DNA of 64,000 nucleotides from Victivallis lenta (GTDB lineage: Bacteria > Verrucomicrobiota > Lentisphaeria > Victivallales > Victivallaceae), in NCBI RefSeq assembly GCF_009695545.1, contig NZ_VUNS01000011.1:93076-157075 (forward strand), given 5' to 3'. Positions 24,560-44,914 of the stretch are shown piece by piece. The translations under genes and the position numbers were made by a program. Every line of letters begins with the position of its first letter. The first letter of the stretch is position 1. The notes under the pieces were generated by a model. That model saw only the letters and a program-made list of their open reading frames with translations, was not told where the DNA came from and did no database searches.

Positions 24560-24717
24560 AACCGGCTCCGGCATTTGCCGCTATATTATTTCGTATACCG
24601 GCCGCTTGAAACGGTGAATCACGGTGAAAATCCGTGGCTGTCGCGCAACCGTAAAAGCCGGACCCCGTGGCGGCCGGTCGAGTGGACAATTGTGCGCGCA
24701 ACACAAAGGACTGAAAA
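24560..24717 (+). promoter_or_regulatory. Cobalamin (B12) riboswitch
   Basis: The conserved core is plain: CGGTGAAAATCCG at 24622-24634 followed by GGCTG and CGCAACCGTAA at 24644-24654, the B12-box/J-region pattern of cobalamin riboswitches. A hairpin TTGTG/CACAA at 24690-24706 with loop CGCGCAA overlaps the AAAGGA ribosome-binding site (24705-24710) of the next gene, so B12 binding probably blocks translation initiation. Outer limits are approximate. It heads the cobalamin operon. The rest of the 24420-24717 gap holds the divergent promoters. Confidence 0.85.
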
Positions 24718-25560
24718 ATGCAAGCTTTCCGCCGGTTCCTCCGTCTCCGAACGTTCACCCTCATCGAGCTCCTCGTCGTCATCGCGATCATCGCGATTCT
24801 CGCGTCGATGCTGCTGCCCGCGCTGAACCAGGCGCGCGAGAAGGCCAGGACGACCACCTGCCTCGGCAACCTGCGCCAGATCGGCGCCGCGAACCAGATG
24901 TATGCGAACGACAACGACGACATGTTCGTGATCTACTGCAGCAGCGCGACCGCGACGAATGCGAAGAACGCCGATTACTGGCTCGGATATCTCGGCGCGA
25001 AGAATTACGACCTGACGAAGAGCAATCTGCTCGGCCGTTATTACGGCGGTTCGCCCCGGGTCATGGTCTGCCCCGGCGTGATGCTGAAGAGCAAGCAGGG
25101 CAACAACGGCAGCGGAGACGAGCTGACCGGCGATCTGACCGACCTGGCCGGGGGCGGCGGTTACGGTTACAACGGCAACTGGCTCGGGCAGTATATTCTG
25201 GACGGCGTCCGCTACAGTTTCAAGCGGAGCCGCATGAAGCAGACCTCGAACACGGTCGCTTTTGCGGACTGCGCCCGTTCGAAGATGGGCAGCACGATGT
25301 ACAATCCGGTACGGGTGACCCCGCTTCTGTACTGCAAGATGAAGCCGAATGGCGACGAGTACGAGGCCGAATCGAGCGGGACGACCCACTTCCGCCACGG
25401 CAAGATGGCGAATGTCTCCTGGGTCGACGGGCATGCGGGCACGGAGCACCCGGGGTCGATCAACGACGACAACGCCGCGCAGGCGGATCTGGTCGGCTAC
25501 GTCGGCATGCTGAAGCAGGATCTGTACAATCCGATGCGTGACAAGGATGAACTGGAGTAG
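24718..25560 (+). CDS. Prepilin-type H-X9-DG protein, first gene behind the cobalamin riboswitch
   Basis: 280 residues: a short basic leader, FTLIELLVV with the shared prepilin helix, then a large globular part ending in [15 protein letters not shown], an exact H-X9-DG match. It is the first gene under the cobalamin riboswitch and is followed after 3 bp by the next operon gene. A pseudopilin for pilus or type II secretion assembly would not normally be B12-controlled; a surface protein that helps capture corrinoids is a possible reading, but nothing in the sequence proves ligand binding. Confidence 0.85.
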
Positions 25561-25563
25561 ACG

Positions 25564-25965
25564 ATGAAAAAGCTTCTGATCATCGCCGCGGTTCTGGCGG
25601 TTTGCGCCGGAGTCTGGTTCATCTGCTCGCGGGAAAAAGTGCCGGCCGCGGCCGAAACGCAGGCGGCTCCGGCGGCCGAAGCGGAGAGAGCGGCCGCGTT
25701 CGTTTCGGAATTCCGGGCTGTCCTGGCCGCGAACGATCTTGTGAAATTGAAGGCGCTCTGCGACAATCCGAAATCGGGGGACCTTGCGGCACAGCTTGAA
25801 CTGCTGCGCGGCGCCGAATTGCCGGAGAAGCCGGAACGGGTCGAATTCCGCACCGCCCGCAGCGACAGCTGGTCGCTCTGTTACCCGGTTGACGGCGGCA
25901 TGATTCAAATTGTGCTGCGCCGGGTGGACGACGGTTCATTCCGTTTCAAGAGCGCATACCGGTGA
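25564..25965 (+). CDS. Small membrane-anchored protein of unknown function
   Basis: 133 residues. One N-terminal hydrophobic segment (LLIIAAVLAVCAGVWFIC) acts as signal or anchor, followed by an Ala/Glu-rich linker and a compact domain of about 80 residues (FVSEFRAVLAANDLVKLKALC, then SWSLCYPVDGGMIQIVLRRV). I recognise no family. Position between the riboswitch-led prepilin and a radical SAM enzyme suggests a role at the envelope in corrinoid or tetrapyrrole acquisition. Confidence 0.65.
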   Translation: MKKLLIIAAVLAVCAGVWFICSREKVPAAAETQAAPAAEAERAAAFVSEFRAVLAANDLVKLKALCDNPKSGDLAAQLELLRGAELPEKPERVEFRTARSDSWSLCYPVDGGMIQIVLRRVDDGSFRFKSAYR

Positions 25966-25979
25966 AGGGAAGGGCGGCC

Positions 25980-27260
25980 ATGATGAAGCAGACGGTACTG
26001 CGCGGCATGATGGGGTTCCCCTGCCGGGAGCTGCCGGAGCCGCCCCGGGTGTGGGAGGAGGCGCTGGCGGCCGACACCGCCACGCGGCGGACGCTCTATA
26101 TCCATATTCCATATTGCCGGAGCCGCTGCCCGTTCTGCCCGTTTTATTTCGGCGGCGCGGGAGAAGAGGAGACGGCGGAGTATGTCCGGCTCCTGCGGCT
26201 CGAACTTGAGCGGTGGGGAGAACTTGCCGGGCGTTTTCCGGTCAACGCGGTTTACTTCGGAGGCGGTACGCCGAGCGACCTCGGCGCGGAGTCGCTTGTG
26301 TCGCTGCTTGACGCGGTGCGGAAGAATTACCGCCTCGCGGCCGACTGCGAGATCACCGTCGAGGGGCGGATTGACGGTTTTGAACCGGAAAAGGCCAGGC
26401 GGCTTGCCGCACACGGCGCGAACCGGCTCTCGATCGGAATCCAGACCTTCGACACGGAACTGCGGCGCAGGCTCGGGCGGGTTTCGGACCGCCGCGCGAT
26501 TCTCGGGCGGCTCGAAGCGCTGGCGGCGATCAATGAATTTTCGCTGGTCATCGATTTGCTCTACGCCCTGCCGGGGCAGACGGCAGCCCGGTGGGAGGCG
26601 GATCTTGCGACGCTGCTTGCCGCGACCCGGGTTTCGGGGCTGGACCTCTACCGGCTTAAAGTTTCGGACACCCTGCCGCTTGCGGCGGCGATCCGCGCCG
26701 GAAAACTGCCGCCGGTGCCGGACGATGAAACGGCCTATGCGATGCATCTGGCCGGTGTGGAGGCGATGCGTTCGGCCGGGGCTGTGCGGATTTCTCCGGT
26801 CCACTTCGCGTTCGAGGCGCGGGAGCGGAATCTGAATAACACGGTTTCGAGCTCGAAACAGGTCTGTCTGCAGTTCGGCATGAAGGCGGTCGGCCGCCTG
26901 GCCGGACGCCGCTTTATGCAGCACAGTGAGTTCCGGTCCTACCGTGAGCTGGTTTCCGCCGGGAGGAAGCCGGTGAAGAGCGCCGGGCTGCTGCCGCCGG
27001 ACTTCGCGGCCTGCGGCGAATTGGCCGGGCAGATCTACCGCCCGATGCGGATTTTTCCGGGCCGGGTGGCGGCCGCCGCTCCGGCCACGGTCCGGGAACG
27101 GGTCGAAACTGCCGTCCGGAGCGGGGCGGAACATTGGGCGGAGCGCGGATTCCTGACGGCGGAGCCGGGGGGAGGATTCGCGTTGACCGAACGGGCGAAT
27201 TTTTCGCATCGGGAGATGGCGTCGGACTTGATGGAACGAATAGCGGAGGCGTATTCATGA
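25980..27260 (+). CDS. HemN/HutW-like radical SAM enzyme (anaerobic heme/tetrapyrrole processing)
   Basis: 426 residues. The radical SAM motif is YCRSRCPFCPF (C-x3-C-x2-C), preceded by YIHIP as in HemN and HutW/ChuW proteins; YFGGGTPS and IGIQTFD follow. The spacing and its place beside a siderophore/heme/B12-type ABC importer favour the HutW/ChuW branch, which opens heme anaerobically, over true HemN. ATG 25980 is preferred because AAGGG runs just upstream; a GTG at 25962 overlapping the previous stop is the alternative. The substrate here could be heme or a corrinoid. Confidence 0.75.
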   Translation: MMKQTVLRGMMGFPCRELPEPPRVWEEALAADTATRRTLYIHIPYCRSRCPFCPFYFGGAGEEETAEYVRLLRLELERWGELAGRFPVNAVYFGGGTPSDLGAESLVSLLDAVRKNYRLAADCEITVEGRIDGFEPEKARRLAAHGANRLSIGIQTFDTELRRRLGRVSDRRAILGRLEALAAINEFSLVIDLLYALPGQTAARWEADLATLLAATRVSGLDLYRLKVSDTLPLAAAIRAGKLPPVPDDETAYAMHLAGVEAMRSAGAVRISPVHFAFEARERNLNNTVSSSKQVCLQFGMKAVGRLAGRRFMQHSEFRSYRELVSAGRKPVKSAGLLPPDFAACGELAGQIYRPMRIFPGRVAAAAPATVRERVETAVRSGAEHWAERGFLTAEPGGGFALTERANFSHREMASDLMERIAEAYS

Positions 27261-28186
27261 GACGGGTTCTGCTGCTGGCTGCGGCGCTGCTGCCGCTCTG
27301 CGGTTTGTTTGCCGAAGTGCTTTCGGAGAGTGCCGGGGCGGTCGTGTTCCGCCAGCCGGACGGAAAGGCGGTGACCCTGCGCAAGAAGCCGGAGCGGGTG
27401 GTGGCCTGCTACGCCTCTTTCGTTCAGGTCTGGTACGCGGCCGGAGGAAAGGTGGTCGGCATTCCGCTGGTCCGGAGCCGGGAGGCGCTTCCCGAGGCGG
27501 CGCGGAAGCTCCCTGTGGTCGGCGGCCTGACCACTCCGAATCCCGAAAAGGTGCTTGCGCTCAAGCCGGACCTTGTGCTGCTGCTCGACAAGTTCGAGAA
27601 GCATCGGGCGGTAAGTGAGGTGCTGAACCGGGCCGGCGTCGAAACGGTGCTGCTCGAGTGCGGCAACTACACCGACTTCTCCGGTCTGCTCGACCTCTTC
27701 TGCCGTTTGAACGGGACGACCGTTGCCGCGCACCCGGAGGGGAAGCGGATCACGGACGAGGTCGCCGCCGTCTGCCGTGAAGTTTCCGCCCTGCCGCCGC
27801 CTTCCGCCGCGATCGTCTTCGCCGCGACCCACGGGTTCAAGCTCGAGGGCGACGAATCGAATACCGGAACCATGCTGAAGATGCTCGGCGCCGGAAACAT
27901 CGCTTCCGGCATCCGGGGTGTCCGGGCCGGATTCAGCTTCGAGCGGCTGCTGGTCGAGAATCCGGATGTGATTCTGGTGGTCACCATGGGCGATGCCGAG
28001 GCGCTGAAGGAGAAGTTCCGGCGTGAAATCATGTCGCAGGAGGCGTGGAAGGCGTTGAAGGCCGAGAAGGAGAAGCGGGTCCACTTTCTGCCCGCCGACC
28101 TGTTTCTGTATCAGCCCGGCACGCGCTATCCGGAGGCGTTCCGTTATCTGGCGAAGCTGCTTTATCCGGGATGGGAGGATAAATGA
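27257..28186 (+). CDS. BtuF/HmuT-like periplasmic binding protein of an ABC importer
   Basis: 309 residues. Signal peptide MRRVLLLAAALLPLCG, then the PERVVACYASFVQVWYAAGG start of class III (helix-backbone) binding proteins; ALKPDLVLLLD and ENPDVILVVTMGD are the other conserved parts. Proteins of this class carry B12, heme or ferric siderophores. The ATG overlaps the radical SAM stop by ATGA. Position under the B12 riboswitch and directly upstream of a permease and ATPase argues for corrinoid or tetrapyrrole import. Confidence 0.85.
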   Translation: MRRVLLLAAALLPLCGLFAEVLSESAGAVVFRQPDGKAVTLRKKPERVVACYASFVQVWYAAGGKVVGIPLVRSREALPEAARKLPVVGGLTTPNPEKVLALKPDLVLLLDKFEKHRAVSEVLNRAGVETVLLECGNYTDFSGLLDLFCRLNGTTVAAHPEGKRITDEVAAVCREVSALPPPSAAIVFAATHGFKLEGDESNTGTMLKMLGAGNIASGIRGVRAGFSFERLLVENPDVILVVTMGDAEALKEKFRREIMSQEAWKALKAEKEKRVHFLPADLFLYQPGTRYPEAFRYLAKLLYPGWEDK

Positions 28187-29193
28187 CGCGCGTTTTTTCT
28201 TCTCTCCGCACGACTGCCGGCCGCTTTGCGGTGAACTTCGCGCTGCTGGCGCTGCTGGCGCTCGTCATGCTGGTCAGCATGCGCTTCGGTTCGCTGAAAC
28301 TGACTTTCGCGGAGATCGTCGGGACGCTCTGGAACCGGCCGGACGGAATCAACGGCCAGATCATCTTCAATATCCGGCTGCCGCGCATCCTGCTCGGCGC
28401 GCTGGTCGGCGGCAGCCTTGCCGCGGCCGGCACGATTCTGCAGGGGGTCATGCGCAATCCGCTCGCGTCGCCCGGGATCATCGGCGTTTCGGCCGGCGGC
28501 GGACTCGGCGGTATTCTGGTCATGCTCGTGCTGCCGCAGTTCGGTTATCTGCTGGTTCCCGCCGCGTTCGGCGGGGCGCTGGTCACGGCGGTACTCGTCT
28601 ATCTGCTGGCCTGGAAGCGCGGCGTGAACCCGGTGCGGCTGATTCTGGCCGGCGTGGCGGTATCGGCCATGCTCGGCGCGTTCAGCAGCACGATCCTGAT
28701 TCTGAACGCCGAGAAGGCGGGCGGCGTGCTCGATTTCACGATCGGTTCGCTTTCGGCCCGGAGCTGGCCGCAGATCGAACAGGTCGCGCCGTATATGGCG
28801 GCCGGTTTCGCCGTCGCGCTGATGCTCGGGCAGAAACTCAATATCCTGACCCTCGGCGATGAGGTTGCGACCGGGCTCGGCATGCGGGTCGAGCGGACAC
28901 GCTTCCTCCTGCTCGCCGTCGCGGCGCTGCTGGCGGCGTCGGCAGTCAGCGTGGCCGGACTGCTCGGCTTCGTCGGGCTCATCGCTCCGCACATCGTCCG
29001 GATCGTGATCGGCTCCGACAACCGGTTCCTGATTCCGGCCTCGGCGCTGTTCGGCGGAATCATGGTGGTCGGCTGCGACACGGTCGGCCGCATGGCGATG
29101 GACCCTTCCGAACTGCCGGTCGGCGTCATCATGTCGCTGCTCGGGCCGCCCTTCTTTCTCTGGCTGTTGAGGAGGCACAGCTATGAAGCTTGA
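28183..29193 (+). CDS. BtuC/HmuU-like (FecCD) ABC permease
   Basis: 336 residues, about ten membrane helices. RLPRILLGALVGGSLAAAG and NPLASPGIIGVSAGG are the FecCD hallmark; the coupling-helix region before GLLGFVGLIAPHIVRI is also typical. It starts with ATGACG overlapping the binding-protein stop by 4 bp and ends 11 bp inside the ATPase gene. It forms the channel of the importer. Confidence 0.93.
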   Translation: MTRVFSSLRTTAGRFAVNFALLALLALVMLVSMRFGSLKLTFAEIVGTLWNRPDGINGQIIFNIRLPRILLGALVGGSLAAAGTILQGVMRNPLASPGIIGVSAGGGLGGILVMLVLPQFGYLLVPAAFGGALVTAVLVYLLAWKRGVNPVRLILAGVAVSAMLGAFSSTILILNAEKAGGVLDFTIGSLSARSWPQIEQVAPYMAAGFAVALMLGQKLNILTLGDEVATGLGMRVERTRFLLLAVAALLAASAVSVAGLLGFVGLIAPHIVRIVIGSDNRFLIPASALFGGIMVVGCDTVGRMAMDPSELPVGVIMSLLGPPFFLWLLRRHSYEA

Positions 29194-29974
29194 TGTGAAA
29201 TCCGTTTCAGCCGGCTACGGCGGCAAGCTCGTGCTCGACGGCGTCGACCTGACCGTCCCGGAGGGCGGCATCCTGACGCTGGTCGGCGCGAACGGCAGCG
29301 GCAAATCGACGCTGCTGAAGGTCATCGGCCGGCTGCTCGAACCGCGCGCCGGGGAGATCGTGCTGGACGGCAGGGCGATCCGCTCCTACGGCACAACCGA
29401 GCTGGCCCGGAAGATGGCGATCCTGCCTCAGCTGCACCATGCTGCGGGGGAGATCACGGTGGGCGAACTGGTCGGTTACGGCCGTTTTCCGCACCGGCGC
29501 GGCTTCGGGCAGCTGAGTGCGGATGACCGCGCGGTGGTCGACGAGACGCTGAAGCTGACCCGGCTCGAGCCGTTCCGCAACCGTCCGGTCGGCACGCTGT
29601 CGGGCGGAGAGCGCCAGCGGGCGTGGATCGCCATGACGCTTGCGCAGCAGCCTCGGTTCCTGCTGCTCGACGAGCCGACGACGTTTCTCGACGTGCGCTG
29701 TCAGTTCGACATCATCGAACTGGTCTGCGACCTGAACCGGCGGCTCGGCATTACGGTGCTGATGGTGCTGCACGACCTGAATCTCGCGGCGCGCTGTTCG
29801 GATATTCTGGTTACGCTGAAGGAGCGGAAGATCCGTCACATCGGAACTCCGGCGGAGATCCTGCGGCCGGAAATCCTGCGGGATATTTTCGGCATCGAAG
29901 CGGAAATCAGCACCGGAACGGACGGCATCCCCTACTGCATTCCGACCGGAAGCGTAAAGGAGGATCAAAGATGA
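29183..29974 (+). CDS. BtuD/HmuV-like ABC ATPase
   Basis: 263 residues with Walker A GANGSGKST, signature LSGGERQR, Walker B FLLLDEPT and the H-loop VLHDLN. This is the FepC/BtuD class that energises class II importers. GAGGAGG precedes ATG 29183, and its stop overlaps the next gene by ATGA. Together with 27257-29193 it makes a complete importer. Confidence 0.95.
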   Translation: MKLDVKSVSAGYGGKLVLDGVDLTVPEGGILTLVGANGSGKSTLLKVIGRLLEPRAGEIVLDGRAIRSYGTTELARKMAILPQLHHAAGEITVGELVGYGRFPHRRGFGQLSADDRAVVDETLKLTRLEPFRNRPVGTLSGGERQRAWIAMTLAQQPRFLLLDEPTTFLDVRCQFDIIELVCDLNRRLGITVLMVLHDLNLAARCSDILVTLKERKIRHIGTPAEILRPEILRDIFGIEAEISTGTDGIPYCIPTGSVKEDQR

Positions 29975-31236
29975 AATGCCTGGTGGTTTACACGAGCCGG
30001 AGCGGCAATACGGAAAAGCTCGCCCGGGCGATTGCGGCGGCGCTGGGGCCGGAGTGCGTTCTTGCGGCGGCCGCCGATGCGCCGCCGCCGGAGAATTTCG
30101 ATTTCATCGCGCTCGGGTTCGGCGTGTACGGCGGCTGGCCGGACGGCGATCTGCGCAGCTATATGAAACGCTGCCGCCGGAAGAACGTCGGCCTTTTCAT
30201 GACGCTCGGCGCATGGCCCGATTCGGAACACGCCTTCCTCTGCATGGGGCGCGCCGAGGGACTGCTGGAAAACTGCACGACGCGGGTGAAATTCATCTGC
30301 CAGGGCGGTTACACGCCCGAACACCTCGCGCGGATGAAGAGCCGCCCGGCCGATTCCCCTCACGCCTGGGACGCCGGGCGCGAGGCGCGCGTCGCCGAAG
30401 CGATGAAGCATCCGGACGAAACGGATCTCCGCATCGCCGCCGACCGTTTCCGGGCCGCCGCGGAGAAGCTGCGGAACGCGCCGCCGCGCCCGGCGAAGCC
30501 GCCGAAGCGGGCGCAGGTGCTCGCCGTGTTCGGCAGCACCGTGCCGGGGGCCGAAGCCTCCTATCGCGCGATCGAAGACGCGATGCGCGAACGGCACCCG
30601 GAGCTGCCGCTCTTCCGGGCCTGCACCTCGTACGCGGTCCGTTCGAAGTGCGCCGCCGCCGCGCCGTCGCTGTCGGGCGTATTGATGCGCCTGGTGCGCG
30701 AAGGGTATGCGGCCGCGAATCTCGTCGTCGGCTTTTTGTCGGCGGGGGAGGAATATCACAAGGTCCGGAGCGAGGCTGCGGCGTTCGGCCCGCAATTGGA
30801 GCTCTGCGTCACACGGCCGCCGCTGTCGGACCGGGCCGGACTGCGGCGCTTTCTCGGTGCGGTGCTCGCGGGGCTGCCGGAGCGCGCGCCGGACGAATGT
30901 GTGCTCTTCATGGGCCACGGCCACGCCGGCGGCCGTTCGGATTTTCAGTACATGGCGGCCGCGTCGGAACTTGCCGGGCTCGACCCGGCGCTGCATCTGG
31001 CCTGCGTCGAGGGGGAGCCCTCCTTCGACCCGGTGCTGCCGGAACTCCGGGGGAAACGGGTCCGCCTGGTCCCGTTCATGCTCGTCGCGGGCGACCATGC
31101 GCTGAACGATATGGCGGGCGACGGGCCGGAGTCGTGGAAAAGCCGCCTCGAAGCGGCCGGATATGAAACGGAATGCGTTCTGCACGGTCTCGGGGAGAAT
31201 CCGGCCGTCGCGCGCTACTTTGCGGAGCTGGTATGA
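29971..31236 (+). CDS. cbiK: Flavodoxin-CbiK fusion: flavodoxin domain + anaerobic sirohydrochlorin cobaltochelatase
   Basis: 421 residues. Residues about 1-165 are a flavodoxin-like domain (YTSRSGNTEKLARAI phosphate loop, then FMTLGAWPDSEHA as in flavodoxin-like partners of anaerobic heme-degrading enzymes). Residues about 185-421 are CbiK: FGSTVPGAE, the metal-site His in MGHGHAGG, and CVEGEPSF. CbiK inserts cobalt into sirohydrochlorin. The fusion of a redox carrier to a chelatase is unusual, and the flavodoxin part may serve the radical SAM enzyme encoded three genes upstream. AAAGGAGG precedes the ATG. Confidence 0.85.
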   Translation: MKCLVVYTSRSGNTEKLARAIAAALGPECVLAAAADAPPPENFDFIALGFGVYGGWPDGDLRSYMKRCRRKNVGLFMTLGAWPDSEHAFLCMGRAEGLLENCTTRVKFICQGGYTPEHLARMKSRPADSPHAWDAGREARVAEAMKHPDETDLRIAADRFRAAAEKLRNAPPRPAKPPKRAQVLAVFGSTVPGAEASYRAIEDAMRERHPELPLFRACTSYAVRSKCAAAAPSLSGVLMRLVREGYAAANLVVGFLSAGEEYHKVRSEAAAFGPQLELCVTRPPLSDRAGLRRFLGAVLAGLPERAPDECVLFMGHGHAGGRSDFQYMAAASELAGLDPALHLACVEGEPSFDPVLPELRGKRVRLVPFMLVAGDHALNDMAGDGPESWKSRLEAAGYETECVLHGLGENPAVARYFAELV

Positions 31237-31928
31237 AAAAAGGAATGTTTTACGGTGTCGGGCTCGGTCCCGGCGACCCGGAGCTCGTCACTTTGAAGGC
31301 GCTCCGCGTGCTGCAGGGGGTCGGCCGGATTTACGCCGTCGCCTCGCGCCAGTCGGACAGGAGCGTCTCGGGGGCGGTCATCGCGGCGCTGCCCGGCATC
31401 ACGGCGGAGCTCGTCGAGCTTGAATTCACGATGTCCACCGACTGGGGCGAACGGCTTGCCCGGATCGACGCGCATGCGTCCGCGATCCATGCCGAACTCG
31501 CATGCGGCGCCGACTGCGCCTTCGTCTCGATCGGAGACCCGATGACTTACAGCACCTGCTCCTATCTGCTGCGGAGCCTCCGCCGGCTCGACCCCGGCCT
31601 CGCGTTCGAAATCGTGCCCGGCGTGAACTCCTGGAGCGCGCTCGCCGCAAAGTGCGGTGAACCGCTCTGCGAGGATCGCGAAATCCTGCGCATCGTGCCG
31701 AGCTACTCGATCGCGGAGGGAGAAGCGCCGGAACTGCCGGAGTGCAGCACGACCGTGCTGCTCAAGACCTACCGGACGCGGAACCGGCTGCTCGAAGCAT
31801 TGCCGCCGGAGGCCCGGGTGCTCTACGGAGCGAACCTCGGGCTGGACAACGAAACGTACAGCTCCCGGCGGGATGAGATCGACGCTCTGCCGGAGGCGTA
31901 TCTGTCGATGCTCGCGGTAAAGAAGTGA
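31233..31928 (+). CDS. cbiL: Cobalt-factor II / precorrin-2 C20-methyltransferase
   Basis: 231 residues of the SAM-dependent tetrapyrrole methylase fold: VGLGPGDPELVTLKA at the start, the SAM loop SIGDPMTYSTCSYL, and VPGVNSWSAL. These match CbiL/CobI, which methylates C20. The start at 31233 overlaps the CbiK stop by ATGA; a longer frame upstream is not used. Next step after cobalt insertion in the anaerobic route. Confidence 0.92.
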   Translation: MKKGMFYGVGLGPGDPELVTLKALRVLQGVGRIYAVASRQSDRSVSGAVIAALPGITAELVELEFTMSTDWGERLARIDAHASAIHAELACGADCAFVSIGDPMTYSTCSYLLRSLRRLDPGLAFEIVPGVNSWSALAAKCGEPLCEDREILRIVPSYSIAEGEAPELPECSTTVLLKTYRTRNRLLEALPPEARVLYGANLGLDNETYSSRRDEIDALPEAYLSMLAVKK

Positions 31929-32911
31929 AGAAGCGCGCCGGCATCATCCTCTCAGTTGCTGCGACGGCGGGCGCCGTGGCATGCACGCCGCCGGCAGAGC
32001 TGCCGCGCGCGTTCCTGTCGCTGGGCGGCATCATTGCGATGGTGCTGGCGATCTGCGTTGCGGCCGGGGTGCTTGAATACCGCTGCTGGCTGCACCGGAT
32101 TGCGGTGCTGGTCCGGCCGCTCATGCGTTTTTCGCGGCTGCCGGAGCCGTGCGCGCTCGCCTTCGTCGCCTCCTTCGCCTCCGGCAACGTCGCGGCGCTG
32201 ATGCTGGCCGACAGCCGGAAGGAAGGGGCCATCGACCGCCGGGAAATGATTCTCGGGGCGCTCTGCAACTCGGTTCCGTCGGCTTTCATGTTCACCTGCT
32301 ATCTGGCGCTTCCGGTCATCGGCATTCTCGGGCGGGCCGGAGTGCTTTACTTTGCGGTATCGTTCGCGATCATGGCGGCGGCGCTGTCGGTTTTTCTCGT
32401 CCTCTCCCGCCGGCTGGCGCGCGGGAGGGTGCCCGCGGGAGGCGTCGCGGCTGCCGCTCCGCCGCTCGCGTGGAGCGAGGTCCGGCGCAAGGTGCGGCGC
32501 CGGGCCTGGAGCTTTCTCGTCCGGCTGCTGCTGCTGACCGTGCCGTTCTACCTGTGGACCTCGTGTGCGATCCGGCACGGCTGGCTGAATTTCACGGCGC
32601 CGAAAAACTTCGAGGCGTTCCTGTCGCCCGCCGCGCTGACCGTGATCGGTTCGCGCGTCGGCGGGCTGCTCGCCTCGTCCGGCACCGCTGCTGAATTGCT
32701 GAAACAACAGCAAATTACCGTAATTCAGCTTGTAATTGCGCTTCTGGTCGGCAATATTTTAAACGGGTTTACGCGCCTGGTCCGCCGCGGTCTGCCGGTT
32801 TCGATGGGAATCTATCCGCGCTGTGACGGCGCGGTGATCGCGGTGGCCGGCGTCGGCACGCGGATGGTGCTGACTGCGGCGGCGGTCGTGATTTTATGGA
32901 GATTGCAGTGA
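31925..32911 (+). CDS. Nucleoside-recognition (Gate) domain membrane protein in cobalamin operon
   Basis: 328 residues with about eight membrane helices starting from GTG 31925 (GTGA overlap). FASGNVAALMLADSRKEG and GNILNGFTRLVRRGLP are characteristic of the nucleoside-recognition/Gate membrane family, also seen in SpmA/B-like proteins. Function is unknown. In this operon it may carry a small substrate such as cobalt, a lower-ligand base or a corrinoid intermediate; that is inference from position. The stop overlaps the ATG of the next gene. Confidence 0.7.
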   Translation: MKKRAGIILSVAATAGAVACTPPAELPRAFLSLGGIIAMVLAICVAAGVLEYRCWLHRIAVLVRPLMRFSRLPEPCALAFVASFASGNVAALMLADSRKEGAIDRREMILGALCNSVPSAFMFTCYLALPVIGILGRAGVLYFAVSFAIMAAALSVFLVLSRRLARGRVPAGGVAAAAPPLAWSEVRRKVRRRAWSFLVRLLLLTVPFYLWTSCAIRHGWLNFTAPKNFEAFLSPAALTVIGSRVGGLLASSGTAAELLKQQQITVIQLVIALLVGNILNGFTRLVRRGLPVSMGIYPRCDGAVIAVAGVGTRMVLTAAAVVILWRLQ

Positions 32912-35445
32912 TGATCGAACATGGCGGAAACCTTGCGAAACTGGCGGAACTGGCCGGGTGCGAACCCGGGGAAATTCTCGACTTCAGCGTGAATTTGAAT
33001 CCGCTCGGGCCTCCGCCCGGCGTTTTCGAACCCTGCTTCCGCAGCTTCGACCGGCTCGGGGAATATCCGGAGCCGTATGCGGAGTCGCTGGTTGCGATGC
33101 TGGCGGAGCGGTGGCGCCTCCCCGCGGCGCGCATCGTCGCCGGGAACGGGTCGAACCTGCTTTTGAACCTGCTGCCGCCGCTCACCGGCGCGAAGCGGGC
33201 GCTGATTGTGACGCCGGGGTATCTCGGGTATGCGGAGGCGTGCCGGAACGGCGGTCTGCCGGTTGTCGAATTCCGGCTGCGGGAGGAGGAGGACTTCATC
33301 CTCGATCCGGCGCGGCTCGGCGACGCGGTCGAGCCGGGAGATCTGGTCATTCTCGGCAACCCGGACAATCCGACCGGTTATGCGCTGCCGCGCGCGGAAC
33401 TCGAGCCGTTCGTCGCGGCTCATCCCGGAGCGCTGTTTCTCATCGACGAGGCGTTCATCGAATTTTACGGCGAGGCGGAGTCGCTGGCGGGCGTCATGCT
33501 GCCGAATCTGGTCGTCAGCCGTTCGTTCACGAAAATCTACGCCGTTCCGGGGCTCCGCATGGGGGCGATGAGCGGGCCGGAGGAGCTGATGGCTCGTCTC
33601 CGGGCGCGGCAGGGGGAGTGGGTGCTCTCCGCGCCCGCCGTCGAAACGGCGAAGTTCCTGCTGGCGCTGCCCGGCGGATTTCCGGAAGAAACCCGCCGGG
33701 AGACGGAGCGGTTGCGCGGCGAACTGGCCGCCGGGCTGGACGGCCTGCCCGGTTTCAAAACTTATCCGTCCTGCGCGAACTATCTGCTGTTCCGGGCGCC
33801 CTGCGCCGATCTGCCGGAACGGCTGCTGGCGGAGCACCGCATCGCGCTGCGGAGCTGCGCCGCCTATCCGGGGCTCGGGCCGGAGTTCTGCCGCGTTGCG
33901 GTGCGCCCCGCGGAGGAGCGTGAACGGCTGCTGGCGGCCCTGCGGGGGAAGGGGCCGTACCTGCCGAAGAAGCGGAAGACGCCGGCCCTCATGCTGCAGG
34001 GAACCTGCTCGAATGCCGGGAAAAGCGTGCTTGCGGCGGCCTTCTGCCGGATTCTGCTTGAAGACGGTTTTTCTGTCGCTCCGTTCAAGGCGCAGAATAT
34101 GGCGCTCAACTCGTATGTGACGCCGGACGGGGGAGAGATCGGCCGTGCGCAGGCCGTGCAGGCCGAGGCGTGTCGCCTCGACCCCGATGTGCGGATGAAT
34201 CCGATCCTGCTCAAGCCGGACAGCGATCTCGGCAGCCAGGTCGTCCTGAACGGCCGCGCGATCGGCAACTTCAAGGTGCGCGAATATTTCCAGCGCAAGC
34301 CGGAGCTCTGGGGCGAGGTCGCAAAGGCCTACGATTCGCTCGCCTCCGAACATGACGTGATCGTGCTCGAGGGAGCGGGCAGCCCCGGTGAAATCAACCT
34401 CAAAAGCGGCGACCTGGTGAATATGCGCATGGCGCGCCATGCCGGCGCGCGGGTCCTGCTGGCCGGGGATATCGACCGCGGCGGGGTCTACGCTTCGTTC
34501 GTCGGCACCTACGCGACGCTTGAGCCGTGGGAGCGCGCGCTGCTCTCCGGCTTTCTGGTCAACAAATTCCGCGGCGACCCGACGCTGCTGGCCGATGCGC
34601 ATGCATATGTCGAGCGCATGACCGGCCGGCCGGTGCGCGGCGTGATCGACTACCAGCGGGACCTCGGGCTGCCGGAGGAGGATTCGGTCAGCTTCTCGTT
34701 CGTCCGCCCGGCGGAGAAGGAGGCGAAGACGCTTGACATCGTGCTGATCCGGCTCGGGTACATCGCGAACTTCACGGATTTCACGCCGTTCGAGATCGAG
34801 CCGGATGTGACGCTGCGCAAGGTTTCGTCGCCGGCCGATTTCGGCGCGCCGGATGCAGTGATCCTGCCCGGCAGCAAGAGCGTCGCGGCCGACCTCGCGC
34901 GGTTGCGGGAGAGCGGGCTTGCCGCGAAGGTGGCCGAAGCGGCGGAGAGCGGCGTTGCGGTCGCCGGCATCTGCGGCGGGCTCCAGCTGCTCGGAGAGCG
35001 TTTGCTTGACCCGGACGGGATCGAATCCGCCGAGCGCGAGGTGCGGTGCCTCGGCCTTCTGCCGCTCGAGACAGTCATGCGCCGAAGGAAGACCCTGCGG
35101 AGGACGCGCGGATTCCGGCCGGACGGCACGGAAATTTCAGGTTACGAAATTCATCACGGCGAAACGGTGCCGACCGGGCCCGGACTCGGAATCATGCGCG
35201 ATACGGAGGGGCGCATGATCGGTTTCGAACGCGGCGGCCTCTTTGCGAGTTATCTGCACGGCATTTTCGATGACGACCGTTTCCGGCGGCTCTGGCTCGA
35301 CGGCCTGCGGCGGAAGAAGGGATGGGCGCCGAAGGGAGGCGTTACGGCCTCGTACGGCGTGGAGGAGGCTTTGAACCGGCTGGCGGCGCATGTCCGCAGC
35401 CGTGTCGATATCGACGGATTGTACAGAGAGTTGGGGGTGCGCTGA
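32911..35445 (+). CDS. cbiP: CobD-CbiP fusion: threonine-phosphate decarboxylase + cobyric acid synthase
   Basis: 844 residues. Residues about 1-350 are a PLP aminotransferase-fold CobD (HGGNLAKLAELAG, GNPDNPTGY, Lys motif SFTKIYAVPG), which makes aminopropanol phosphate. Residues about 355-844 are CbiP: ATP loop QGTCSNAGKS, APFKAQNMALNSYVT, and glutaminase Cys GICGGLQLLG with LHGIF His. Both active sites are intact. The ATG at 32911 overlaps the preceding stop and is typical for the CobD start; ATG 32896 is the alternative. Fusion brings the side-chain donor and amidation in one chain. Confidence 0.92.
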   Translation: MIEHGGNLAKLAELAGCEPGEILDFSVNLNPLGPPPGVFEPCFRSFDRLGEYPEPYAESLVAMLAERWRLPAARIVAGNGSNLLLNLLPPLTGAKRALIVTPGYLGYAEACRNGGLPVVEFRLREEEDFILDPARLGDAVEPGDLVILGNPDNPTGYALPRAELEPFVAAHPGALFLIDEAFIEFYGEAESLAGVMLPNLVVSRSFTKIYAVPGLRMGAMSGPEELMARLRARQGEWVLSAPAVETAKFLLALPGGFPEETRRETERLRGELAAGLDGLPGFKTYPSCANYLLFRAPCADLPERLLAEHRIALRSCAAYPGLGPEFCRVAVRPAEERERLLAALRGKGPYLPKKRKTPALMLQGTCSNAGKSVLAAAFCRILLEDGFSVAPFKAQNMALNSYVTPDGGEIGRAQAVQAEACRLDPDVRMNPILLKPDSDLGSQVVLNGRAIGNFKVREYFQRKPELWGEVAKAYDSLASEHDVIVLEGAGSPGEINLKSGDLVNMRMARHAGARVLLAGDIDRGGVYASFVGTYATLEPWERALLSGFLVNKFRGDPTLLADAHAYVERMTGRPVRGVIDYQRDLGLPEEDSVSFSFVRPAEKEAKTLDIVLIRLGYIANFTDFTPFEIEPDVTLRKVSSPADFGAPDAVILPGSKSVAADLARLRESGLAAKVAEAAESGVAVAGICGGLQLLGERLLDPDGIESAEREVRCLGLLPLETVMRRRKTLRRTRGFRPDGTEISGYEIHHGETVPTGPGLGIMRDTEGRMIGFERGGLFASYLHGIFDDDRFRRLWLDGLRRKKGWAPKGGVTASYGVEEALNRLAAHVRSRVDIDGLYRELGVR

Positions 35446-35976
35446 ATGCTGAAGGAAGAGGACAGGACGAAGGGGCTGCTGCTGAACCTGACCGGCGACG
35501 GAAAGGGAAAGAGTTCGAGCGCCTTCGGGATCGCGGTTCGTGCGCTCGGCTGGGAGTGGCGCGTGGCCGTGCTGCAGTTCATCAAGGGGGGACGGCCGAC
35601 CGGGGAACGCAACTTTTTCCGGAAATATGTTCCGGGGATGATGTTCGAGAGCTGCGGGCTCGGGCTCACGAAGGGGCCCGGCGACCACGCTTCCGCCGCC
35701 GCAGCCGGCTGGGAGCGGGCGAAGGAGCTGCTGCGCGGCTTCGACGGCGAACTTCTGATTCTCGACGAATTGAATATCGCAGTCCGCCACGGTTATCTCG
35801 ATGCGGCGGAGGTCGCGGCCGCCCTGTCCGGACGGCGGGCCGGGCTCAATGTGATCGTGACCGGGCGCGGTGCCGCGCCGGAACTGCTGGAGATTGCGGA
35901 CCTCGTATCCGAAATCCGTGCGGTCAGGCATCCGTTCCTGAACGGGGAACCCGCCAGAAAGGGGCTGGACTACTGA
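35446..35976 (+). CDS. btuR: Cob(I)alamin / cob(I)yrinic acid a,c-diamide adenosyltransferase
   Basis: 176 residues with the unusual P-loop TGDGKGKSSSAFG of the CobA/CobO/BtuR family, QFIKGG and LLILDELN (Walker B-like). It adds the 5'-deoxyadenosyl ligand to Co(I). It starts directly after the CobD-CbiP stop. Length is close to the family norm. Confidence 0.95.
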   Translation: MLKEEDRTKGLLLNLTGDGKGKSSSAFGIAVRALGWEWRVAVLQFIKGGRPTGERNFFRKYVPGMMFESCGLGLTKGPGDHASAAAAGWERAKELLRGFDGELLILDELNIAVRHGYLDAAEVAAALSGRRAGLNVIVTGRGAAPELLEIADLVSEIRAVRHPFLNGEPARKGLDY

Positions 35977-36641
35977 TGAATCCTTTTGACTCCATCGTCT
36001 GGGACCGCGACGGCGGCGCGATCGAAAGCGAGAGTTTCCGCCGCATCGATGCGGAAGCCGATCCGCGCATGCGCGGCCGTTTTTCCGACGCCGAGTGGCG
36101 CGTCGCCCGGCGGCTGGTCCACACGACGGCCGATTTTTCGATCCTGCCGGAGCTCGAATTTTCCGGCGGGGCGGTGGAGGCGGGCCTCGCCGCGCTGCGG
36201 CGCGGAGCCCGGATCTACTCCGATTCGAACATGATCAAATCCGGACTCTCGATTCCGAAGCTGAAGCGTTTTTTCCCGGGGTACGAGCGTGAATCGATCC
36301 TCTGCCCGGTGGCCGATCCGGAGGTCCGGGAATACGCTGCCGCGCGCGGCATCACCCGCGCGCTCGCGGCGGTCGAACTGCATGCGCCGGAGCTGGAGGG
36401 CGCGGTTTTCCTTTGCGGCAACGCGCCGCTGGCGCTGGCCGGCGTGGTCCGGCTCGCGGTCGAACGCGGCGTCGTTCCGGCGCTGATCGTCGGCATGCCG
36501 GTCGGCTTTGTGAATGTGGTCGAGTCGAAAAAACTGCTCGATCTGGTCGATATCCCGTTTGTGCGGATCAACGGCCGTCGCGGGGGCAGTCCGCTCGCCG
36601 TTGCGGCGCTGCACGGCATGATGGAGGGAGAGCTGCAATGA
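35976..36641 (+). CDS. cbiC: Cobalt-precorrin-8 methylmutase
   Basis: 221 residues. The catalytic His is in RRLVHTTADFS, DSNMIKSGLS and GMPVGFVNVVESKK are also conserved in CbiC/CobH. It moves the C11 methyl to C12 to make cobyrinate. TGATG overlap with btuR, ATGA overlap with cbiD. Confidence 0.95.
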   Translation: MNPFDSIVWDRDGGAIESESFRRIDAEADPRMRGRFSDAEWRVARRLVHTTADFSILPELEFSGGAVEAGLAALRRGARIYSDSNMIKSGLSIPKLKRFFPGYERESILCPVADPEVREYAAARGITRALAAVELHAPELEGAVFLCGNAPLALAGVVRLAVERGVVPALIVGMPVGFVNVVESKKLLDLVDIPFVRINGRRGGSPLAVAALHGMMEGELQ

Positions 36642-37702
36642 AGACGGCCGGGGAACTGCGGTCGGGTTTCACGACCGGGAGCGCGATGACGGCGGCGGCC
36701 GTCGCCGCCTATCTCGATCTCCGCGACCGGGTCGCGATTCTGCTGCCGGGCGGCGGAACGCTCGACATTCCGATCGCGCGGCGGTGGCCGGACGGCGCCG
36801 CGGTCGTCAAGGACGGCGGCGACGACCCGGATGTGACCAGCGGCTGCGAAGTCGCGGTGACGCTTTGTCCGTTCGACGGACCGGAGACGGAGGCCGACCA
36901 TGTCGAACCGTGCGGCGGCGGAACGCTCGTCGTCCGCGGCGCCGCCGGGGTCGGCCGGGTGACCCGGCCCGGCCTGGCGTTGCCGGTCGGCAAAAGCTCG
37001 ATCAACGCCGGGCCGCGCCGCATGCTGGCCGAGAACATGGCGCATGCCGGTTTCGGCCGCCGCGAAGGCGAGCGGCTGCTCCTCTCCGTATCGGTCACGG
37101 GCGGGGAGGAGATCGCCCGGAAGACCCTGAATCCGTCGCTCGGCATCGAGGGCGGAATTTCGATTCTCGGGCACAGCGGGATCGTCCGCCCGTTCTCGAA
37201 TGCGGCCTATGCCAGAACGATCGTGCTGCAGCTGCGGAGCATCGCCGCCAACGGCGGCCGCATGGCAGCGCTGACGACCGGCAACCGGACGACCGGGGCG
37301 GTCCGGCGCGACTACCCGGAGCTCGTGCCGGAGGGGATCGTGCCGATTGCGGATTTCATCCGCATCGCGGTCCGTGCGGCGGCCGCGGCGAAACTCGAGA
37401 CGCTGGTGGTCGGCTGCATGGCGGGCAAGCTGTTCAAATATGCGTGCGGGCTCTGGAACACGCACGCGCACCGGAACCGGCTCATGTTGTCGCAGCTGCG
37501 CGATTTCGGCATCGGGCTCGACGGCCTGCCGCTGGAGGAGATGGAGACGATGGGGGAACTCGCCTCGCGCCTGACGCCGGAGCGTTACCGCGAAATTCTC
37601 GATGCGGTCTACGAACGGGCCCGGCAGGTCCTGCAGGAGTGGGCCGGCGACACCCGGATTGTGCTCGCGCTCTACGACAGCGAAGGGAGGCGGCTTCGAT
37701 GA
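36638..37702 (+). CDS. cbiD: Cobalt-precorrin-5B C1-methyltransferase
   Basis: 354 residues. RSGFTTGSAMTAAA at the N-terminus is the family hallmark, with KSSINAGPRRM, GISILGHSGIVRPFS and CMAGKLFKYACG following. CbiD methylates C1 in the anaerobic, early-cobalt route and does not occur in the aerobic one, so the pathway type is fixed. Coupled at both ends. Confidence 0.95.
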   Translation: MKTAGELRSGFTTGSAMTAAAVAAYLDLRDRVAILLPGGGTLDIPIARRWPDGAAVVKDGGDDPDVTSGCEVAVTLCPFDGPETEADHVEPCGGGTLVVRGAAGVGRVTRPGLALPVGKSSINAGPRRMLAENMAHAGFGRREGERLLLSVSVTGGEEIARKTLNPSLGIEGGISILGHSGIVRPFSNAAYARTIVLQLRSIAANGGRMAALTTGNRTTGAVRRDYPELVPEGIVPIADFIRIAVRAAAAAKLETLVVGCMAGKLFKYACGLWNTHAHRNRLMLSQLRDFGIGLDGLPLEEMETMGELASRLTPERYREILDAVYERARQVLQEWAGDTRIVLALYDSEGRRLR

Positions 37703-40727: not shown

Positions 40728-41469
40728 AGTATTTGCGGTCGGCATCGGGCCCGGCAGCCCGGAGCTGCTGACTTTTCAGGCCCGGCGGGTGCTCGAACAG
40801 TGTACGGCGGTGGCCGGTTACCGGCTCTACCTCGATCAGATCCGGGAGCTGCTCGACGGGAAGAGGCTGATTCCGGGGGCGATGCGGCAGGAGATCGCGC
40901 GCTGCCGCGAGGCGCTCGAAGCCGCGCTGGCCGGAGAGACGGTCGCGGTGGTCTCCTCCGGCGACGCCGGGGTCTACGGCATGGCCGGACTGCTGCTCGA
41001 ACTGACCGAACTCGAACGCTATCGTTCCGTCGAGATCGAGGTGGTCCCCGGCATCACGGCGGCGCTGGCGGCGGCGGCGCTGATCGGGGCGCCGTTCATG
41101 AACGACTTCGCGGTGTTGAGCTTGTCGGATCTCATGACGCCGAAAGAGCTGATTCAAAAGCGGCTCTATGCGGTCGCCTCCTGCGATATGCCGGCGGCGC
41201 TCTACAACCCGCGCAGCACCAGGCGCCATGAACTCCTCGAAGAGGCGGTCTCCGTTTTCCGCGACGCCGGCGGGGATCTGCCCTGCGCGCTGATTCATGA
41301 CGCCTGCCGCGATAAGCAGCGAATCGAGCTGACCACGCTCGGAACGTTTCCGTTTGAACATGTCTGGATGACCACGATCGTCATCATCGGCAACTCCGCA
41401 ACCATCGTCCGGGACGGCCGTTTCTACTGCCGCCGCGGTTACCGGGAGAAACATGAGTTCGAAGCGTAG
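40720..41469 (+). CDS. cbiH: Cobalt-factor III / precorrin-3B C17-methyltransferase
   Basis: 249 residues. VGIGPGSPELLTFQA, SSGDAGVYGMAGLLLE, VPGITAALAAAALIGAP and YNPRS are CbiH/CobJ hallmarks. It methylates C17 and contracts the ring. No extra ferredoxin-like or CbiJ domain is attached. The cbiA start lies inside its last codons. Confidence 0.95.
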   Translation: MSKVFAVGIGPGSPELLTFQARRVLEQCTAVAGYRLYLDQIRELLDGKRLIPGAMRQEIARCREALEAALAGETVAVVSSGDAGVYGMAGLLLELTELERYRSVEIEVVPGITAALAAAALIGAPFMNDFAVLSLSDLMTPKELIQKRLYAVASCDMPAALYNPRSTRRHELLEEAVSVFRDAGGDLPCALIHDACRDKQRIELTTLGTFPFEHVWMTTIVIIGNSATIVRDGRFYCRRGYREKHEFEA

Positions 41470-44913: not shown

Positions 44914-44914
44914 C

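What the first reader, a model, noticed from the sequence alone, without database searches (positions are those of the whole stretch)
25980..31236. HutW-like radical SAM enzyme, tetrapyrrole importer and flavodoxin-CbiK fusion in one block
Anaerobic heme-opening enzymes of the HutW/ChuW/HmuW type work with a flavodoxin and an importer. Here the same three parts stand at the head of a B12 operon, and the flavodoxin is fused to the cobalt chelatase. The block may import heme or a corrinoid and process it, possibly feeding or recycling tetrapyrrole for B12.
Basis: inference. Interest (0 to 1): 0.7.

Follow-up and report, generated by a model that had tools for sequence, protein, structure and literature searches.

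The report
B12-controlled tetrapyrrole-ring salvage cassette
A bacterium in whose genome four key genes for making tetrapyrrole rings were not found carries, behind a vitamin-B12 riboswitch, genes for an importer, a relative of heme-opening enzymes and a flavodoxin fused to a cobalt-inserting enzyme, and these likely take up a ready-made ring and prepare it for building vitamin B12.

Summary
At 25980-31236 lie a HutW-related radical SAM enzyme, a binding protein, a FecCD permease, an ATPase and a flavodoxin-CbiK fusion, with overlapping ends, at the head of a cob/cbi operon. Ten of 197 genomes of the class carry this radical SAM clade. It is monophyletic on the HutW side of the tree, directly upstream of the importer in 10 of 10 loci, and riboswitch-controlled in 6 of 10, against 0 of 8 HutW-type loci outside the class. 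HutW's invariant Tyr is kept in 3 of 85 clade rows. The flavodoxin keeps the FldH heme-ligand His.

HemB, HemC, SUMT, precorrin-2 dehydrogenase and CbiX were not found in the host genome (99.9% complete), while CbiK and later cbi genes are present. It therefore probably cannot make the ring. Best reading: a B12-regulated cassette that imports a ready-made tetrapyrrole, edits it and hands it to CbiK. Substrate and reaction are untested. Against it: sister species keep riboswitch and importer but lack enzyme and CbiK, and the enzyme does not track ring-gene loss (8/15 vs 2/5). Main rival: ordinary corrinoid importer.

The parts
24600..24675 (+). AdoCbl-II (cobalamin) riboswitch
   Evidence: Rfam RF01689, 45.7 bits over gathering 36.5; cobalamin-type riboswitches at 6 of 10 rSAM-clade loci
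24718..25560 (+). pseudopilin-like protein (prepilin N-terminal motif); conserved first gene of the block
   Evidence: N_methyl just under cut-off, GspG-like 34.5 bits; same-strand homologue upstream of the rSAM in 10 of 10 clade loci, here with one small gene between
25564..25965 (+). small exported or membrane-anchored protein, no family
   Evidence: no Pfam or NCBIfam hit; homologues (59-63%) at the same place in G192 and G193
25980..27260 (+). HutW-related, class C-type radical SAM enzyme (B12-locus clade); start ATG 25980 or 25983
   Evidence: TIGR04107 337.5 bits; tree; model pLDDT 95.4, nearest PDB fold HemN 1olt, TM 0.81
27257..28186 (+). periplasmic substrate-binding protein, nearer heme-binding IsdE than BtuF
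   Evidence: Peripla_BP_2; profile A1 against PDB: Lmo2184 98.8, IsdE 91.5, BtuF 48.2 bits
28183..29193 (+). FecCD-type permease; the only one over cut-off in the host genome
   Evidence: genome-wide PF01032
29183..29974 (+). ABC ATPase of the importer
   Evidence: ABC_tran, FecE-like
29971..31236 (+). flavodoxin (HmuF/FldH-like) fused to CbiK cobaltochelatase
   Evidence: PF12641 + PF06180; Foldseek 2xvx/1qgo (CbiK) and 8g64 (heme-bound FldH); His131 counted from Met 29971 aligns with FldH His134; model pLDDT 86.9, pTM 0.62, so the placing of the two domains to each other is not reliable
31233..31928 (+). CbiL, C20-methyltransferase
   Evidence: TIGR01467 164.4 bits, just over cut-off
31925..32911 (+). 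Gate-domain membrane protein, possibly a CbtX-like cobalt transporter (identity with CbtX not tested)
   Evidence: PF07670 31 bits; CbtX clusters with cbiK in PMC545781 (passages)
32896..46713 (+). rest of the cob/cbi operon: cobD-cobQ, cobO, cbiC, cbiD, cbiET, cbiF-cbiG, cbiH, cbiA, cbiB, cobC, cobU, cobT, cobS
   Evidence: NCBIfam best names; cobO, cbiC and cobC under cut-off

Best explanation
The block is a cobalamin-riboswitch-headed operon start that encodes an importer, a HutW-related radical SAM enzyme and a flavodoxin-CbiK fusion, and it likely serves to take up a ready-made tetrapyrrole ring and turn it into the cobalt-loaded precursor from which this predicted ring auxotroph would build B12. 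Proposed steps: (1) low B12 opens the riboswitch (inferred from the Rfam match). (2) The SBP-permease-ATPase imports a tetrapyrrole; I think a sirohydrochlorin-level ring such as siroheme most likely, because neither SUMT nor precorrin-2 dehydrogenase was found (inferred). (3) The flavodoxin domain holds the ring against its FMN, as HmuF/FldH hold heme, exchanges it with the radical SAM enzyme and reduces that enzyme's product (inferred from HmuF). (4) The radical SAM enzyme, kin to ring-opening HutW but lacking a Tyr that none of 31 HutW rows varies, edits the ring instead of destroying it (speculative). (5) The fused CbiK domain inserts Co2+, and CbiL and the later cbi enzymes finish the corrin (CbiK and CbiL shown by family match; flux untested). 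If the ring arrives with iron, that iron must first be removed, by a membrane HmuS/CobN-like protein elsewhere in the genome or by the fusion itself (open).
For: Ring auxotrophy: in G000 (99.9% complete) there was no match to HemB PF00490, HemC PF01379, SirC/Met8 TIGR01470 or CbiX PF01903. The best SUMT hit, TIGR01469 173.1 bits against a cut-off of 185, is the CbiF domain of window 38931-40727, which scores 330 for CbiF. CbiK and the later cbi genes are present. HemB and HemC were not found in 8 of 10 rSAM-clade genomes (G000, G194, G161, G096, G097, G080, G082, G117; 80-99.9% complete) and are present in G085 and G196. The rSAM sits directly upstream of the SBP in 10 of 10 loci. Cobalamin-type riboswitch at 6 of 10 clade loci against 0 of 8 HutW-type loci outside the class (Fisher p 0.013). 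The importer is the only FecCD system over cut-off in G000, and its SBP is nearer heme-binding IsdE than BtuF. His131 of the flavodoxin, the FldH heme ligand, is invariant in 8 of 8 fusions. The chelatase keeps the GHG His in 8 of 8 fusions and the second His in 8 of 8, read AGDH in 7 and AGEH in G119. HutW-invariant Tyr kept in 3 of 85 clade rows against 31 of 31 HutW rows; Arg305 in 85 of 85 against 12 of 31. Precursor salvagers are a known class, and uroporphyrin III has been reported in stool (PMC6461909, passages).
Against: rSAM presence does not track loss of ring genes: 8 of 15 HemB/HemC-less cob genomes have it against 2 of 5 HemC-positive ones (Fisher p 1.0). G192 and G193, same genus, keep riboswitch, importer and cbi genes in the same order but lack rSAM, CbiK and CbiX, so rSAM and CbiK are dispensable for whatever the importer brings them. 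Cob loci without the rSAM have the riboswitch too (4 of 6 scanned: G192, G193, G183, G195; not G118, G119), so B12 control belongs to the locus, not to the enzyme. G116, G118 and G119 have importer and CbiK without rSAM; G117 has rSAM with a CbiK that lacks the flavodoxin. No assay exists, and no substrate is shown. A B12-element over cbiK-cbiL and btuCDF is known from Desulfovibrio (PMC545781, passages), so an importer beside cbiK can be ordinary. Four of 10 clade loci show no riboswitch over gathering. The tree does not settle whether the clade arose inside HutW or is its sister. HemD, HemA, HemL and CbiJ were not searched. If IsdE's Met78/His229 are the ligands (recalled), the SBP keeps neither.
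Confidence: 0.45

Rival explanations
1. The importer is an ordinary BtuFCD-type corrinoid importer placed with cbiK-cbiL under a B12 riboswitch; the ring for B12 enters by another route or the organism mainly salvages corrinoids, and the radical SAM enzyme has an unrelated accessory role.
For: B12-element over cbiK-cbiL and btuCDF in Desulfovibrio (PMC545781, passages). It is the only FecCD permease over cut-off in G000, G192, G193 and G161, so any corrinoid import by this transporter class must use it. The importer exists without rSAM in G192, G193, G195, G118, G119, G183 (absence of the rSAM), and 4 of these 6 have a cobalamin riboswitch.
Against: SBP profile is nearer heme-binding IsdE (91.5 bits) than BtuF (48.2). 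It leaves the missing ring genes and the tight rSAM-SBP linkage (10 of 10) unexplained.
Confidence: 0.25
2. It is a heme-iron system: the radical SAM enzyme opens imported heme as HutW does, the flavodoxin domain reduces the bilin, and the link to B12 is incidental.
For: HutW side of the tree; HmuF/FldH-like flavodoxin with the heme-ligand His; heme-type SBP; HutW-type rSAM with flavodoxin_3 and a doubled ATPase in 4 of 8 loci outside the class.
Against: Cobalamin riboswitch at 6 of 10 loci against 0 of 8 HutW-type loci outside the class; flavodoxin fused to CbiK in 8 genomes; loss of the HutW-invariant Tyr and of the usual Trp; the genome has a separate CobN/HmuS-like protein that could serve heme.
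Confidence: 0.13
3. Cobalt salvage: the enzyme opens imported cobalt tetrapyrroles (unusable corrinoids or cobalt porphyrins) and the freed Co2+ is passed to the fused CbiK.
For: rSAM-clade genomes carry CbiK in 9 of 10 (G082, 80% complete, lacks a hit); HutW chemistry frees the metal; B12 control fits.
Against: The operon has its own candidate cobalt transporter (Gate protein, CbtX-like by context only). A predicted ring auxotroph would be destroying the ring type it needs. G196's CbiK is not next to the block.
Confidence: 0.08
4. The enzyme is a HemN-type coproporphyrinogen oxidase or a HemW heme chaperone.
For: HemN fold (TM 0.81 to 1olt); HemW model 136.5 bits.
Against: HutW model scores 337.5 bits; the tree puts the clade with HutW and HemN/HemW apart at 99/99; the genome has its own HemW-like gene at C7 (183 bits, under the cut-off of 205.4) and no HemB or HemC was found to feed HemN.
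Confidence: 0.02

Closest known systems
HutW/ChuW/HmuW anaerobilin synthases with HmuF and HmuTUV (Fusobacterium hmuTRUVWF)
   Same: Class C-type radical SAM enzyme, flavodoxin of the HmuF/FldH kind and an ABC importer in one block (PMC10404700, abstract, parts 1-2 and passages)
   Different: B12 riboswitch and cob operon instead of a heme-uptake locus; flavodoxin fused to CbiK; enzyme under the TIGR04107 cut-off and without HutW's invariant Tyr; no TonB receptor among the genes named here
Desulfovibrio B12-element locus cbiK-cbiL + btuCDF
   Same: B12 riboswitch over cbiK, cbiL and a BtuCDF-type importer (PMC545781, passages)
   Different: No radical SAM enzyme or flavodoxin fusion mentioned in the passages seen; here four early ring genes were not found
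Tetrapyrrole precursor salvagers (Shelton et al. 2018)
   Same: Complete corrin and nucleotide-loop genes, early ring genes missing (PMC6461909, passages)
   Different: There ALA dependence was shown in culture for three species; in the passages seen no dedicated import or processing cassette is named
HmuS heme de-chelatase (CobN-like)
   Same: A CobN-like protein with hydrophobic ends exists in the same genome
   Different: It is at another locus (G000:C6) and shows no cobalamin riboswitch in the 20 kb scanned

Membership tests
HutW/ChuW anaerobilin synthase (TIGR04107) | Score over the curated equivalog cut-off (400 bits) | tested here: not met
   337.5 bits
HutW/ChuW anaerobilin synthase (TIGR04107) | Common lineage with HutW, apart from HemN/HemW | tested here: met
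   Clade 100/100, on one side with the HutW rows, HemN/HemW apart at 99/99; inside or sister to HutW not settled
HutW/ChuW anaerobilin synthase (TIGR04107) | CX3CX2C cluster motif and residues invariant in HutW | tested here: inconclusive
   Cys45/49/52, GGGTP and RER kept; Tyr of RERNxYN kept in 3 of 85 clade rows against 31 of 31; Trp275 in 0 of 85 against 28 of 31
HutW/ChuW anaerobilin synthase (TIGR04107) | Opens heme and releases iron | not testable with these tools
   needs an anaerobic assay
HmuF/FldH heme-binding flavodoxin | FMN phosphate loop and heme-ligand His in the cap | tested here: met
   Loop S-R-S-G-N-T present; His131 aligns with FldH His134 and is invariant in 8 of 8 fusions; Foldseek hit 8g64, TMt 0.81
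HmuF/FldH heme-binding flavodoxin | Binds FMN and heme, reduces bilin | not testable with these tools
   biochemistry needed
CbiK anaerobic cobaltochelatase | CbiK fold and metal-site histidines | tested here: met
   PF06180 128.5 bits; GHG and AGDH histidines kept (which residues bind metal is recalled); His of the SLH motif replaced; NF047852 126 bits, under its cut-off of 400
BtuFCD corrinoid importer | SBP closest to BtuF | tested here: not met
   Lmo2184 and IsdE rank first, BtuF 48 bits; BtuF model 36.3 bits against cut-off 234
BtuFCD corrinoid importer | Transports corrinoid | not testable with these tools
   uptake assay needed
Tetrapyrrole precursor salvager | Corrin genes present, early ring genes absent | tested here: met
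   HemB, HemC, SUMT, SirC not found in G000; cbi genes present; HemA, HemL, HemD and CbiJ not searched
HemN coproporphyrinogen dehydrogenase | HemN model cut-off and clade | tested here: not met
   101 bits against 325; tree

The most novel reading that the evidence does not exclude
The radical SAM enzyme is a HutW turned builder: it radically C-methylates an imported, already oxidised uroporphyrin III, the fused flavodoxin adds hydride, and the sum, uroporphyrin C40H38N4O16 plus two (CH3 + H), equals sirohydrochlorin C42H46N4O16, which passes straight to the fused CbiK. This would be an oxygen-free bypass of HemA-D, SUMT and precorrin-2 dehydrogenase from a waste porphyrin into B12. Formulas are recalled; a radical methylation at these substituted ring carbons has no precedent that I know of.
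Probability: 0.1. Interest if true: 0.92.

Novelty: new variant of a known kind. Interest (0 to 1): 0.66.

Why it matters
How bacteria that keep the corrin pathway but lack the early ring genes obtain their ring is largely open; the paper that defined precursor salvagers says little further work has explored them (PMC6461909, passages). This cassette names concrete, testable genes for import and processing, in a setting with natural controls: sister species with and without the enzyme and the chelatase. It also suggests that a heme-destroying enzyme and its flavodoxin were taken over for cofactor building, and that B12 supply in a microbial community may depend on tetrapyrroles released by others.

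Tried and rejected
Flavodoxin domain as the missing precorrin-2 dehydrogenase (HemG-like): SirC over cut-off is present in 1 of 8 genomes with the fusion against 15 of 23 with unfused CbiK (counted by hand; 6 further genomes with only short, 26-32-bit matches to the CbiK family were left out; Fisher p 0.0155). But SirC over cut-off is missing in all 15 HemB/HemC-less cob genomes, fused or not (G194 has one sub-cut-off 21-bit match), so the association follows pathway loss and shared descent; not adopted.

rSAM as a radical substitute for CbiL (both act on a meso carbon): CbiL is missing between the fusion and cobD-cobQ in G194, G161, G096 and G097. G194 has CbiL on another contig (63%) and G000, G080 and G117 have both, so a plain replacement fails there. 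For G161, G096 and G097 a CbiL elsewhere was not excluded.

HmuS/CobN-like protein as part of the B12 regulon: present in 14 of 15 HemB/HemC-less cob genomes against 2 of 5 with HemC (p 0.03), but 0 of 8 such loci scanned show a cobalamin riboswitch (L142-L147, L149 and L117; 8 of the 16 CobN-like loci fetched were given to that call). Left as a possible helper. The cob-positive list (21 of 30 handles) was read from the CbiF-like hits; G076 (HemB present, HemC not found, 86% complete) was left out of the 15 against 5 comparisons.

First tree had several rows read on the wrong strand; discarded and rebuilt. Genome-wide RF00174 in G000 found nothing, not even the window's own AdoCbl-II site, so it says nothing about the regulon. 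The genome-contig scan gave only 3 weak loci.


Full report
What is there. The block at 25980-31236 is as described: a HutW-related radical SAM gene, an SBP-permease-ATPase importer and a flavodoxin-CbiK fusion. It reads on into cbiL and a cob/cbi set reaching cobS at 46713 (cobO, cbiC and cobC under their models' cut-offs). Upstream lie an AdoCbl-II riboswitch at 24600-24675, a pseudopilin-like gene and a small exported protein. From the rSAM gene to the Gate gene neighbouring genes overlap by 4-11 bases.

What the enzyme is. TIGR04107 (HutW) is its best family, 337.5 bits, under the cut-off of 400. In a 53-row tree (51 different rows) the B12-locus clade (27 rows) is monophyletic at 100/100 on the HutW side, with HemN and HemW rows apart at 99/99; whether it arose inside HutW or is its sister is not settled, and the two E. 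coli outgroup rows are long. The predicted structure (pLDDT 95.4) has HemN as nearest solved fold. Compared over 85 clade rows and 31 HutW rows, the cluster cysteines, GGGTP and RER are shared. The HutW-invariant Tyr (window Asn285) is kept in 3 of 85; the Trp at 275 (28 of 31 HutW rows) in 0 of 85. Lys292 is found in 83 of 85 against 0 of 31, Arg305 in 85 of 85 against 12 of 31. The rows are those of suitable length among the 120 listed of 863 hits; I drew the line between the groups by rank (P0087 / P0089), so they are the nearest part of the family and not all 31 bear a HutW name.

Where the clade lives. Ten of 197 genomes of the class hold it. In a draw of 387 genomes of the phylum, 17 match at E 1e-60 or better: 8 of this clade, all in the window's own order, 1 distant HutW-type in the same order (G078) and 8 HutW-type outside the class. 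In 10 of 10 clade loci a pseudopilin-like gene lies upstream (in the window with one small gene between) and the SBP and permease follow on the same strand. The contig ends inside the permease in G080, G085 and G097, whose ATPase and fusion lie on other contigs. A cobalamin-type riboswitch passes gathering in 6 of 10 (G000, G194, G082, G096, G085, G196), not in G117, G080, G161, G097. Of the 8 outside loci (20 kb each, one of 5 kb) 0 have such a riboswitch and 0 a CbiK match. Four have an ATPase ORF with two matches and a standalone flavodoxin_3, two an SBP-permease-ATPase about 6 kb away, two neither. G078 and G060 inside the class also show rSAM, doubled ATPase and flavodoxin.

The host probably cannot make the ring. 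G000 is 99.9% complete. HemB: 0 matches (42 of 197 genomes of the class have one). HemC: 0 (12 of 30 handles have one). Precorrin-2 dehydrogenase: 0 (33 of 197 over cut-off). CbiX: 0. SUMT: the best of three TIGR01469 matches, 173.1 bits, is the CbiF domain of the window. E. coli rang among the control genomes for HemB, HemC, precorrin-2 dehydrogenase and SUMT. Among the 10 clade genomes HemB and HemC were not found in 8 and are present in G085 and G196; some of the 8 are only 80-92% complete. HemA, HemL, HemD and CbiJ were not searched.

Natural controls. G192 and G193, same genus, have riboswitch, pseudopilin, small protein, SBP, permease, ATPase, cbiL, cobD-cobQ and the rest in the window's order, without rSAM and without any CbiK hit. 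G118 and G116 have importer and unfused CbiK, G119 importer and fusion, all without this rSAM; G117 has rSAM and unfused CbiK. So importer, chelatase, flavodoxin and enzyme are separable layers. The rSAM was found only with the importer (10 of 10), while the importer also occurs alone, and 4 of 6 such loci scanned have the riboswitch too. Among 20 cob-positive handles the rSAM is in 8 of 15 without HemB/HemC and 2 of 5 with them, which is no association.

The fusion. The flavodoxin part matches 8g64, heme-bound FldH. FldH's heme ligand His134, identified by its neighbours Leu130, Ile133 and Val137 in PMC10404700 (passages), aligns with His131 of the window protein, invariant in 8 of 8 fusions. 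It is also present in standalone partners of HutW-type enzymes (G295, G313, G370, G060; the G078 copy is cut short), but not in the host's second flavodoxin_3. The CbiK part keeps the GHG and AGDH histidines. Of 12 CbiKs encoded next to importer genes, 11 (8 fused, 3 unfused of one genus) lack the His of the usual SLH motif; G183 keeps it. G182, G195, G083, G134 and G076 keep a His there, while G120, G122 and second copies in G083 and G134 lack it without an importer, so the change is not confined to these loci. Which residues bind metal in 1qgo is recalled. The model of the fusion (pLDDT 86.9, pTM 0.62) does not fix the domains to each other.

The importer. The SBP profile ranks Lmo2184 (98.8 bits; heme role recalled) and IsdE (91.5) before BtuF (48.2). 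The IsdE ligands Met78 and His229, as recalled, correspond to a variable position and to an invariant Met244. G000 has one FecCD permease over cut-off.

Reading. HmuF hands heme to HmuW and reduces its product by hydride transfer (PMC10404700). Here the HmuF-like domain is welded to the cobalt chelatase, the radical SAM gene stands behind a B12 riboswitch, and the host appears to lack the early ring genes. The simplest sense is that an imported ring is held, edited and metallated for B12. Ring opening would destroy what such a cell must import, and the enzyme has lost a Tyr that none of the 31 HutW rows varies. With SUMT and precorrin-2 dehydrogenase not found, a sirohydrochlorin-level ring such as siroheme is my favoured import; a CobN/HmuS-like protein in the same genome could remove its iron. 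What the radical SAM step does is not settled; the bold option is in the section on the most novel reading.

Against this. Desulfovibrio has a B12-element over cbiK-cbiL and btuCDF (PMC545781, passages), so the importer may be a plain corrinoid importer. G192 and G193 do without the enzyme and the chelatase. Nothing here shows a substrate.

Literature seen. PMC10404700 abstract, parts 1-2 and passages; PMC10035031 part 1 and one passage; PMC6461909, PMC12583661, PMC7242693 and PMC545781 passages only; others as search listings. Searches for HutW/ChuW/HmuW, CbiK+flavodoxin+radical SAM, cobalamin riboswitch+HemN+radical SAM (no paper), cobalamin degradation/corrin ring set, anaerobilin, tetrapyrrole precursor+cobamide, sirohydrochlorin/siroheme uptake set, Victivallis+cobalamin biosynthesis, CbiK+flavodoxin and a mixed HutW/riboswitch set listed no paper whose title or printed abstract start describes this cassette; I did not read all listed papers, some lists were cut at 10 or 20, and only open-licence papers are held.

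Noticed in passing
24718-25560; L034-L040, L042, L043, L112, L113, L115, L118: A pseudopilin-like protein is upstream of the rSAM in 10 of 10 clade loci and also stands in importer loci without the rSAM, and similar genes stand by several CobN/HmuS-like loci. It could be a surface or periplasmic tetrapyrrole-binding part, but such genes may be numerous in these genomes; the baseline was not tested.
   Followed up: partly
G000:C6:125594-129013 (L142 8249-12499, minus strand): CobN/HmuS-like protein with hydrophobic N- and C-terminal segments (by eye); in a relative (L149) it follows MotA/ExbB and DUF2149 genes. In G182 such a gene ends directly at cbiK (L117 14729-18862 and 18840-19760).
   Followed up: partly
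31925-32911: Gate-domain membrane protein between cbiL and cobD-cobQ; related ORFs sit beside cbiL or cbiK in G194, G076, G083 and G134. Possibly the CbtX-type cobalt transporter.
   Followed up: no
L045, L046, L171, L172, L174, L178: Sets of HutW-type rSAM, an ATPase ORF with two ABC matches (ECF-like by guess) and standalone flavodoxin_3, without cobalamin riboswitch: probably another heme-handling transporter type.
   Followed up: partly
L036 11804-13989: G194 has two tandem SBP genes (50% and 45% to the window SBP), suggesting two substrates for one importer.
   Followed up: no
L045 455-2002: The HutW-type enzyme of G078 has an N-terminal PCP_red domain, as do many HutW-type hits; meaning unknown.
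   Followed up: no
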